From a bacterium (GTDB taxonomy: Bacteria; Myxococcota_A; UBA9160; UBA4427), in contig JAUIMK010000009.1 in the NCBI GenBank assembly GCA_030432735.1, positions 1 to 33,611 on the forward strand: a stretch of DNA of 33,611 nt. Reading direction: 5' to 3'. Shown here piece after piece: positions 929-32,759 of the stretch. The notes under the pieces are model-generated. The model saw only the letters and a list, made by a program, of their open reading frames with translations, was not told the origin of the DNA and did not search any database. Numbering within the stretch: the stretch's first letter is position 1; each line of letters opens with the position of its first letter. Both the position numbers and the translations under genes were made by a program.

Positions 929-1513
929 CTATCCGTCCCCGAGCGCCGGATGGGCCTCGGGGAGCGCGCAGAACGCGCCGCTCGAGAAGCCCTGGTCGGC
1001 GACGTCGAAGCCGCGGTTGAACCGCGCCCGGAAGTTTTCGAGGGCGATCACGCCGGTCAGCTCGACCAGCTGCTCTTCGGAGAGGTGCTGGAGCAGCGTC
1101 TCCACCTGCGCGTCGCTGGCCGTCGCCGGCGTGCGCGTGAGCGCGACGGTGTAGTCGAGGACGAGAATCTCGAGCGCGTCGAAGGCATCGCTCTCCGCGT
1201 GACGCGGGATGGCCCGGAGCTGTGCCTCGGTGAGGCCGTGTTCCCTGCCGACGGCAGAGTTGATGTCCAGTCAGAAGACGCACCCGATCATCGAGGCGGC
1301 TTTGAGGCAGGCGAGGGTCTTCAGTCGCGCCGGCACCGTCTGGCCCCGGTCGAGGCTGATCTGGAGGAGCCCCGCGCCCCACATCGTGGCGCGGCTCTTC
1401 GCCATGATCCGGAGCGGATCCGGCACGGCGCCGACCTGCTTCGCGGCCGCCGAGAAGACCCGCTTCGTCAGGAACCCCGCTTCTTCGTCTCGTACGCCTT
1501 CGATCCTCGCCAT
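929..1513 (-). CDS. AhpD/carboxymuconolactone decarboxylase-like selenoprotein (in-frame TGA = Sec, CxxU)
   Basis: The 194-residue frame starts at ATG 1513 with GGGAGG upstream. It is read through a single TGA at 1273-1271 (codon 81) and ends at TAG 931-929. Before the TGA the product reads LKTLACLKAASMIGCVF; after it, LDINSAVGREHGLTEAQL. Cysteine homologues of this family have GCxFCxDxNSA at this place, so the TGA sits precisely on the second Cys of the redox CxxC motif. The protein after the TGA is fully family-like, for instance FNRGFDVADQGFS near the C-terminus, which argues against decay. A hairpin that fits a bacterial SECIS starts 12 nt after the TGA. AhpD-like proteins are a known bacterial selenoprotein family; they are small helical thiol/selenol oxidoreductases acting on peroxides or as disulfide reductants. 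The main alternative is a base error (TGC read as TGA). An annotation pipeline would truncate this gene at 80 codons or miss half of it. The neighbours are sugar-nucleotide genes on the same strand. Confidence 0.86.
1243..1259 (-). promoter_or_regulatory. Candidate bacterial SECIS hairpin
   Basis: On the minus strand CTCTGCC pairs with GGCAGGG around a GTC loop, giving seven pairs of which one is G-U. The loop G lies 19 nt after the UGA. This fits what is known of bacterial SECIS elements: a short stem, a small apical loop with G in its first two positions, and about 16-37 nt between UGA and that G. The stem uses codons TCT (Ser) and AGG (Arg), which look uncommon in this GC-rich window. This suggests the bases are kept for structure rather than for protein. 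Confidence 0.75.
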
Positions 1514-1653
1514 CGCCGTCCTCCCGGGTCGATCCCGCTCTCCCGTCCATCGGGCTCGGACCGGTGGGGCAGGCAGATCCCGAAAGGTTCCCGGACGCGT
1601 CGACTCGGTCGTGACTGCGGTTCAGGCCCGGAAGGAGCCGCGAGAGGCGACCT

Positions 1654-31976: not shown

Positions 31977-32759
31977 TCACAGAGAGTTGAAGCCCGCGAT
32001 CCACTTCCCCGCGGTGGCGCCGCCGTCGACCGGTAGATCGATTCCCGTCACGCCGGCGCTCGCGTCGGAGGCGAGGTAGAGGACCGCCTGCGCGATCTCC
32101 TCGAAGGACGCGCCGCCCGGGATGCCGCGGTTCTCCTGGTACGCCTGGGTCTGGTCCATGAAGGACACCATCTTCTCGAGCCACGGGCCGTACATCGCGG
32201 GATTGCCCCCGGCAGCGCAGACCGAGTTCACCCGGATGCCGGAGCGACCGAGCTCGAGGGCCGTCGACTTGGCGAGGCCGCGGACGCCGAATTTGCTCGC
32301 CGAGTACGCGGACACGCCGTTCATGCCGACGAGCCCGTCGATCGACGAGATGTGGACGATCGATCCGCTGCCCTGCGCCTTCATCGTCGCGAGCACCGCG
32401 CGGGTGCCCAGATAGGGGCCGACGGTGTTGACCTCGAGCACCCGTCGGAACACGTCCGGCGGCGTGTTCTCGACGGTCCCGAGGTGGAGGATCGCGGCGT
32501 TGTTCACGAGCACGTCGATCCGGCCGTGTCGATCGAGGGTCGCGTCGACGGCGCGGGCCCAGTCGTCTTCGCGGGTCACGTCGAGCGGCTCGAAAGAGGC
32601 GTCCCCCGCGATCTCCGCGGCGGTCTTCTCGCCTTCCGGGACGAGGACGTCGGTGAGGACGACCTTCGCGCCGGCTTCGGACAGGGTCCGTGCGACCTGG
32701 GCACCGACGCCGCGGGAGGCGCCGGTGACGAGAGCGATGCGGTCATCGAGACGGGACAT
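31977..32759 (-). CDS. SDR-family oxidoreductase, 3-alpha/20-beta-hydroxysteroid dehydrogenase-like
   Basis: A 260-residue classical SDR from ATG 32759. Motifs are TGASRGVG at 12-19, D37 (VVLTDVLV, NAD preference), NNAA at 86-89, S138/S139 in VHISSIDGLVG and Y152-x3-K156 in AYSASKFGVRG. The segment GMNGVSAYSASKFGVRGLAKSTALELG and the late loop CAAGGNPAMYGP resemble 3-alpha(or 20-beta)-hydroxysteroid dehydrogenases of actinobacteria. The C-terminus ends VTGIDLPVDGGATAGKW, as is usual in that branch. It stands alone on the minus strand, convergent with the KSI-like gene. Substrate assignment is by resemblance only. Confidence 0.92.
   Translation of the reverse strand: MSRLDDRIALVTGASRGVGAQVARTLSEAGAKVVLTDVLVPEGEKTAAEIAGDASFEPLDVTREDDWARAVDATLDRHGRIDVLVNNAAILHLGTVENTPPDVFRRVLEVNTVGPYLGTRAVLATMKAQGSGSIVHISSIDGLVGMNGVSAYSASKFGVRGLAKSTALELGRSGIRVNSVCAAGGNPAMYGPWLEKMVSFMDQTQAYQENRGIPGGASFEEIAQAVLYLASDASAGVTGIDLPVDGGATAGKWIAGFNSL

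What the first reader, a model, noticed from the sequence alone, without database searches (positions are those of the whole stretch)
1243..1259. SECIS-like hairpin correctly spaced after the UGA and visible in codon choice
Minus strand CTCTGCC-GTC-GGCAGGG makes seven pairs with a GUC loop; the loop G is 19 nt after UGA, within the known bacterial SECIS window. The stem forces TCT and AGG codons, which seem uncommon in this window, so structure is probably selected. The three-base loop is at the small end for SelB-binding loops.
Basis: partly seen in the sequence, partly recalled or inferred. Interest (0 to 1): 0.75.

Follow-up and report, generated by a model that had tools for sequence, protein, structure and literature searches.

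The report
Selenocysteine hairpin in AhpD-like gene
The small RNA hairpin just after an in-frame UGA codon is a real bacterial signal for inserting the rare amino acid selenocysteine into an AhpD-type redox protein; the kind of protein and of signal are already known, and what is added here is unusually clean evidence that evolution preserved the RNA shape itself.

Summary
Confirmed, and ordinary in kind. Minus strand 1259-1243 reads CUCUGCC-GUC-GGCAGGG: seven pairs (one U·G), loop G at nt 19 after the UGA at 1273-1271. The UGA lies in an open frame (1513-929, 194 aa) for a CMD/AhpD-like protein with a CxxU motif. One such hairpin proves little: 13% of all TGA triplets in this GC-rich window are followed by a hairpin that fits the published bSECIS model. 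The relatives settle it. 47 further genes, from Myxococcota to Chloroflexota, carry UGA at the same residue. On 45 of the 48 sequences (three with a shifted or different stem left out), 94% of cells of this 7-bp stem pair, against 34-58% when slid; five of seven pairs show compensatory changes. The loop starts GU or GG in 45 of 48. Ser +5 is TCT in 31/35 (3.4% elsewhere in these genes); Arg +9 is AGA/AGG in 33/36 (8.9%). The 25 Cys homologues lack the stem (2.4 pairs, chance level). The genome has tRNA-Sec, SelA, SelB and SelD. It is therefore a bSECIS element of a Sec-containing AhpD-like (COG2128-type) protein, a family described in 2005-2008: a new member of a known kind.

The parts
929..1513 (-). 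CMD/AhpD-like selenoprotein gene, 194 aa with UGA read as Sec, TAG stop at 931-929
   Evidence: translation; PF02627 above its cut-off; 47 homologues with the same in-frame TGA; purifying selection on both sides of the TGA
1520..1524 (-). GGAGG Shine-Dalgarno-like sequence, 6 nt before ATG 1513-1511
   Evidence: direct reading
1271..1282 (-). CxxU redox motif (Cys78-Val-Phe-Sec81)
   Evidence: translation; alignment A1; Cys at the Sec position in Cys homologues
1271..1273 (-). in-frame UGA, Sec codon 81
1243..1259 (-). bSECIS hairpin, 7 bp with GUC loop, overlapping codons +4 to +10
   Evidence: fold; covariation; codon test; synonymous recoding null
1253..1259 (-). 5' arm of the stem (CUCUGCC)
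1250..1252 (-). apical loop GUC; G is the expected SelB contact (inferred from the published model)
   Evidence: loop starts GU or GG in 45 of 48 UGA genes
1243..1249 (-). 3' arm of the stem (GGCAGGG; GGCAGAG in most relatives)

Best explanation
The hairpin is a bacterial SECIS element inside the coding sequence of an AhpD/CMD-like selenoprotein. When the gene is translated, SelB carrying Sec-tRNA-Sec binds the small G-containing loop, and the ribosome reads UGA 1273-1271 as selenocysteine instead of stopping. That puts Sec at the second position of the family's CxxC active site (CVFU). Shown here by comparative sequence evidence: the open frame across the UGA, selection on both sides of it, selection for the RNA stem itself, and the presence of tRNA-Sec, SelA, SelB and SelD genes. 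Inferred: SelB binding, the insertion itself, and the protein's role as a selenol-based peroxidase or other thiol-type oxidoreductase.
For: Same UGA residue in 48 genes. In the 45 aligned sequences 94.3% of stem cells pair (34-58% when slid); 29 cells and 5 of 7 pairs have two-sided changes, covariation 0.326 against 0.124 in shuffles, 0/500. Over 48 genes 309 native pairs; 2,000 synonymous recodings with the genes' own codon usage average about 183 and never exceed 209. The 25 Cys forms sit at chance (2.4 pairs per gene, null mean 2.2). Ser +5 TCT 31/35 against 15/446 elsewhere in the same genes; Arg +9 AGA/AGG 33/36 against 60/677. tRNA-Sec 67.8 bits with TCA anticodon; SelA and SelB; SelD. 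All UGA-form genomes examined have selA. dN well below dS before and after the UGA (0.09/0.66 and 0.09/0.40 against the congener L008). Fits the published bSECIS constraints.
Against: No experiment shows Sec incorporation or SelB binding. The hairpin alone is not diagnostic (12.9% base rate). Under an uninterrupted-stem reading of the model with an energy cut of -7.5 kcal/mol, 10 of 48 UGA genes fall short, most of them narrowly. Two Acidimicrobiales genes (L065, L067) lack the stem in this register. Counts are of related sequences, so shuffle figures are not independent probabilities.
Confidence: 0.97

Rival explanations
1. The hairpin is a by-product of conserved protein sequence (Ser-Ala-Val-Gly-Arg) in GC-rich DNA and has no role as RNA.
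For: Hairpins of this kind are common in this window; SAVGR/SAGGR residues are conserved in many members.
Against: Rare codons TCT and AGA/AGG are used at exactly these positions; synonymous recoding destroys the stem; stems CGCUAGC/GCUAGCG and CGCUGCC/GGCAGCG pair with different amino acids (NASGAS, NAAGGS); Cys homologues show no stem.
Confidence: 0.01
2. UGA is a genuine stop or a sequencing/assembly error in a broken gene.
For: Standard gene callers would end the frame at the UGA; the assembly is a fragmented metagenome bin (544 contigs).
Against: The same UGA at the same residue in 48 separately assembled genes, strong purifying selection beyond it, and conserved C-terminal motifs such as ENFRARFNRGF.
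Confidence: 0.01
3. UGA is read as tryptophan or by non-programmed suppression.
For: None found beyond the open frame.
Against: Homologues have Cys, not Trp, there; the other in-frame-TGA candidate in the window (31979) ends a complete SDR gene, so UGA is a stop here; a full Sec machinery is present.
Confidence: 0.01

Closest known systems
AhpD-like selenoprotein, COG2128 (YciW), CxxU (AhpD-like 1 of the GOS survey; Zhang et al. 2005, PMC1088965; 2008, PMC2398784)
   Same: CMD/AhpD family, CxxU motif, in-frame UGA followed by a bSECIS hairpin with a G-containing small loop
   Different: This copy lies in a genome of GTDB-Myxococcota kinship rather than a marine metagenome read; the COG assignment itself could not be run here
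NCBIfam NF053654 GroundWater_YciW, YciW-related (seleno)protein
   Same: Full-length match over residues 1-175 (103 bits); the related Chloroflexi/groundwater genes L068-L072 also carry UGA
   Different: Far below the family's curated cut-off of 310 bits, so not a member of that equivalog
bSECIS consensus model (Fig. 2A of PMC13188914)
   Same: Loop 3 nt starting GU, 7-bp stem, 18 nt spacing, energy -9.1 to -10.2
   Different: Nothing outside the stated limits; the loop is at the lower length limit
E. coli fdhF SECIS
   Same: In-frame hairpin after UGA with a G/U loop (from general knowledge)
   Different: Different sequence and no bulged U in the stem here (comparison from memory, not computed)

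Membership tests
[quoted passage not shown]
   GUC loop; GU/GG in 45 of 48 relatives
bSECIS element | upper stem 4-16 bp and MFE <= -7.5 kcal/mol | tested here: met
   7 bp, -9.1, -10.2 with flanks
bSECIS element | 16-37 nt between UGA and loop | tested here: met
   18 nt
bSECIS element | conserved as RNA structure among orthologues | tested here: met
   covariation, recoding null
bSECIS element | bound by SelB and drives Sec insertion | not testable with these tools
   SelB gene present, binding not tested
Sec-decoding organism | tRNA-Sec, SelA, SelB, SelD | tested here: met
AhpD/CMD-like selenoprotein (CxxU) | CMD domain | tested here: met
   PF02627, 33.7 bits against cut-off 23
AhpD/CMD-like selenoprotein (CxxU) | CxxU motif with Cys-containing homologues | tested here: met
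   GCVFU; GCxFC in Cys forms
AhpD/CMD-like selenoprotein (CxxU) | COG2128 assignment | not tested
   no COG library on hand; TIGR01926 and NF053654 hits are below their cut-offs
NF053654 GroundWater_YciW | score over the curated cut-off of 310 bits | tested here: not met
   103.3 bits
AhpD alkylhydroperoxidase | peroxidase activity | not testable with these tools
   nearest solved structures include AhpD-like proteins and the debrominase Bmp8, so the reaction is open

The most novel reading that the evidence does not exclude
The SECIS requirement has shaped the protein next to the active site across several phyla, and in at least one lineage (L021, a UGA gene inside a mostly Cys clade, with an unrelated 8-bp stem CUCGUACG-GUG-CGUACGAG at nearly the same spot) a SECIS hairpin was built anew after a Cys to Sec change.
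Probability: 0.35. Interest if true: 0.45.

Novelty: new member of a known kind. Interest (0 to 1): 0.3.

Why it matters
The gene would be truncated to 80 residues by ordinary annotation, so recognising it corrects the gene model and adds a selenium-dependent redox protein to poorly known Myxococcota-related lineages. The alignment of UGA forms with Cys forms gives a clean case in which RNA-level and protein-level selection on the same 17 bases can be told apart.

Tried and rejected
A whole-segment folding energy test was a poor discriminator: against synonymous recodings the UGA forms average z -0.9 and only 8 of 48 reach p<0.05, because GC-rich recodings make other structures; a test of the specific seven pairs was used instead. 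The first genome-contig scan with the single protein found nothing; the alignment query found 46 loci. A second in-frame TGA with coding-like sequence on both sides (31979, minus) was checked and rejected: it ends a complete SDR gene and the extension matches no Pfam family. A literature search for selenoproteins in myxobacteria gave nothing relevant. Structure prediction was not run, since the fold family is clear from sequence.

Full report
What was checked. As RNA this is a 7-bp stem with one U-G pair and a GUC loop, -9.1 kcal/mol for the stem and -10.2 with neighbours. The preceding TGA is at 1273-1271; 18 nt lie between it and the loop, so the loop G is nt 19.

The gene. The frame 1513-929, with TGA read as Sec, gives 194 residues ending at TAG, behind a GGAGG (1524-1520). 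The protein matches Pfam CMD (PF02627, 33.7 bits, cut-off 23) and, below cut-off, NCBIfam NF053654 'YciW-related (seleno)protein' over residues 1-175. The UGA falls in GCVFU, the place of the second Cys of the family's CxxC. Nearest solved structures include AhpD-like proteins and the CMD-type debrominase Bmp8.

Is the hairpin more than chance? By itself, barely. Of 583 TGA triplets in this 69.5% GC window, 75 (12.9%) are followed by a hairpin that meets the published bSECIS constraints (constraints from PMC13188914). One of them follows the true stop codon of an SDR gene at 31979. The case rests on relatives.

Relatives. Searches of 60 near genomes, 377 genomes of the phylum and the named genome collection gave 48 distinct genes with TGA at this residue, the window's included, and 25 with Cys codons. 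Named carriers are recorded as Myxococcota, Chloroflexota, Acidobacteriota, Pseudomonadota, Actinomycetota and Binatota. Most are metagenome bins, so the taxon names are not all secure.

Covariation. On the ungapped alignment of 45 UGA sequences (L021, L065 and L067 left out because their stems differ), 94.3% of cells of the seven-pair stem form standard pairs; sliding one arm gives 34-58%. Five of seven pairs have two-sided changes (29 cells); the covariation score is 0.326 against 0.124 +/- 0.015 in shuffles, 0/500. RNAalifold finds the same stem unaided, without the innermost pair. Stems include CUCUGCC/GGCAGAG (commonest), CUCGGCC/GGCCGAG, UUCUGCC/GGCAGAA, CGCUGCC/GGCAGCG and CGCUAGC/GCUAGCG. 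The last two come with different amino acids (NAAGGS, NASGAS instead of NSAVGR/NSAGGR). The loop begins GU (24) or GG (21) in 45 of 48.

Codons. At codon +5, Ser is TCT in 31 of 35; elsewhere in the same genes TCT is 15 of 446 Ser codons. At +9, Arg is AGA (26) or AGG (7) in 33 of 36; elsewhere 60 of 677. In the window's ORFs TCT is 3.2% of Ser, AGG 3.3% and AGA 1.1% of Arg. When codons are redrawn synonymously from each gene's own usage, the 48 genes form on average 3.8 of the seven pairs against 6.4 in nature; the highest total in 2,000 draws was 209 against 309. The 25 Cys genes form 2.4 against 2.2 expected. The stem is thus selected as RNA, and only where UGA is used. These sequences are related, so the figures overstate the number of independent events, but the existence of several unrelated stem types does not depend on that.

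Frame beyond the UGA. Against the congener L008, dN/dS is 0.092/0.66 before and 0.090/0.40 after the UGA; other pairs agree.

Machinery. The genome has tRNA-Sec with TCA anticodon (67.8 bits), SelA and SelB and SelD. All 15 UGA-form genomes of the near set and all 11 UGA-form genomes of the wider set have selA. Five of ten Cys-form genomes examined lack it. In the near set selA is nearly universal (57 of 60), so co-occurrence there is weak evidence; the three without it show no UGA form.

Evolution. In the protein tree the UGA/Cys label needs about four changes (3-5 in bootstraps; 18 in shuffled labels). Cys forms L108, L113, L114 and L079 sit inside a mostly UGA clade, and L021 (UGA) sits in a mostly Cys clade with an unrelated stem CUCGUACG-GUG-CGUACGAG. 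This suggests that the hairpin can be lost and rebuilt, but support near L021 is modest (90/59).

Verdict. A bSECIS element of an AhpD-like CxxU selenoprotein. AhpD-like CxxU selenoproteins with bSECIS hairpins were described from the Sargasso Sea (PMC1088965), numbered 299 sequences in the GOS survey (PMC2398784) and are listed in later reviews (PMC9312934, PMC13188914). Insertion of Sec and the enzyme's reaction are inferred, not shown.

Noticed in passing
L021 (G055:C191), 36 nt after the TGA: A UGA form inside a mostly Cys clade carries a completely different 8-bp hairpin, CUCGUACG-GUG-CGUACGAG, with its loop one nt further from the UGA: a possible independent SECIS origin.
   Followed up: partly
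L065 and L067 (Acidimicrobiales), downstream of the TGA: UGA forms (GCLWU) without the family's stem in this register; an alternative 7-bp hairpin with a 5-nt loop 24 nt after the UGA fits the bSECIS limits.
   Followed up: partly
G000 contigs C428, C487, C211: Two SelA/SelB sets in the window's genome: C487/C211 match the congener at 84-88% identity, while SelB on C428 is only about 37% identical to either. The bin has 5% contamination, so C428 may be foreign, or acquired.
   Followed up: partly
G000:C81:10883-11797: SelD lies in an open frame of 786 aa, much longer than SelD alone; it could be the known NADH-dehydrogenase-SelD fusion (PMC2398784) but the rest was not examined.
   Followed up: no
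window 31979 (minus): TGA stop of an SDR gene followed by 189 further open codons of high GC3 and a bSECIS-like hairpin; a false positive that shows the base rate.
   Followed up: yes
L018 and L012: The matches in G015 and G014 run into an in-frame TAG at their C-terminal end; in L018 it falls at the natural end of the protein, and L012 looks the same.
   Followed up: partly
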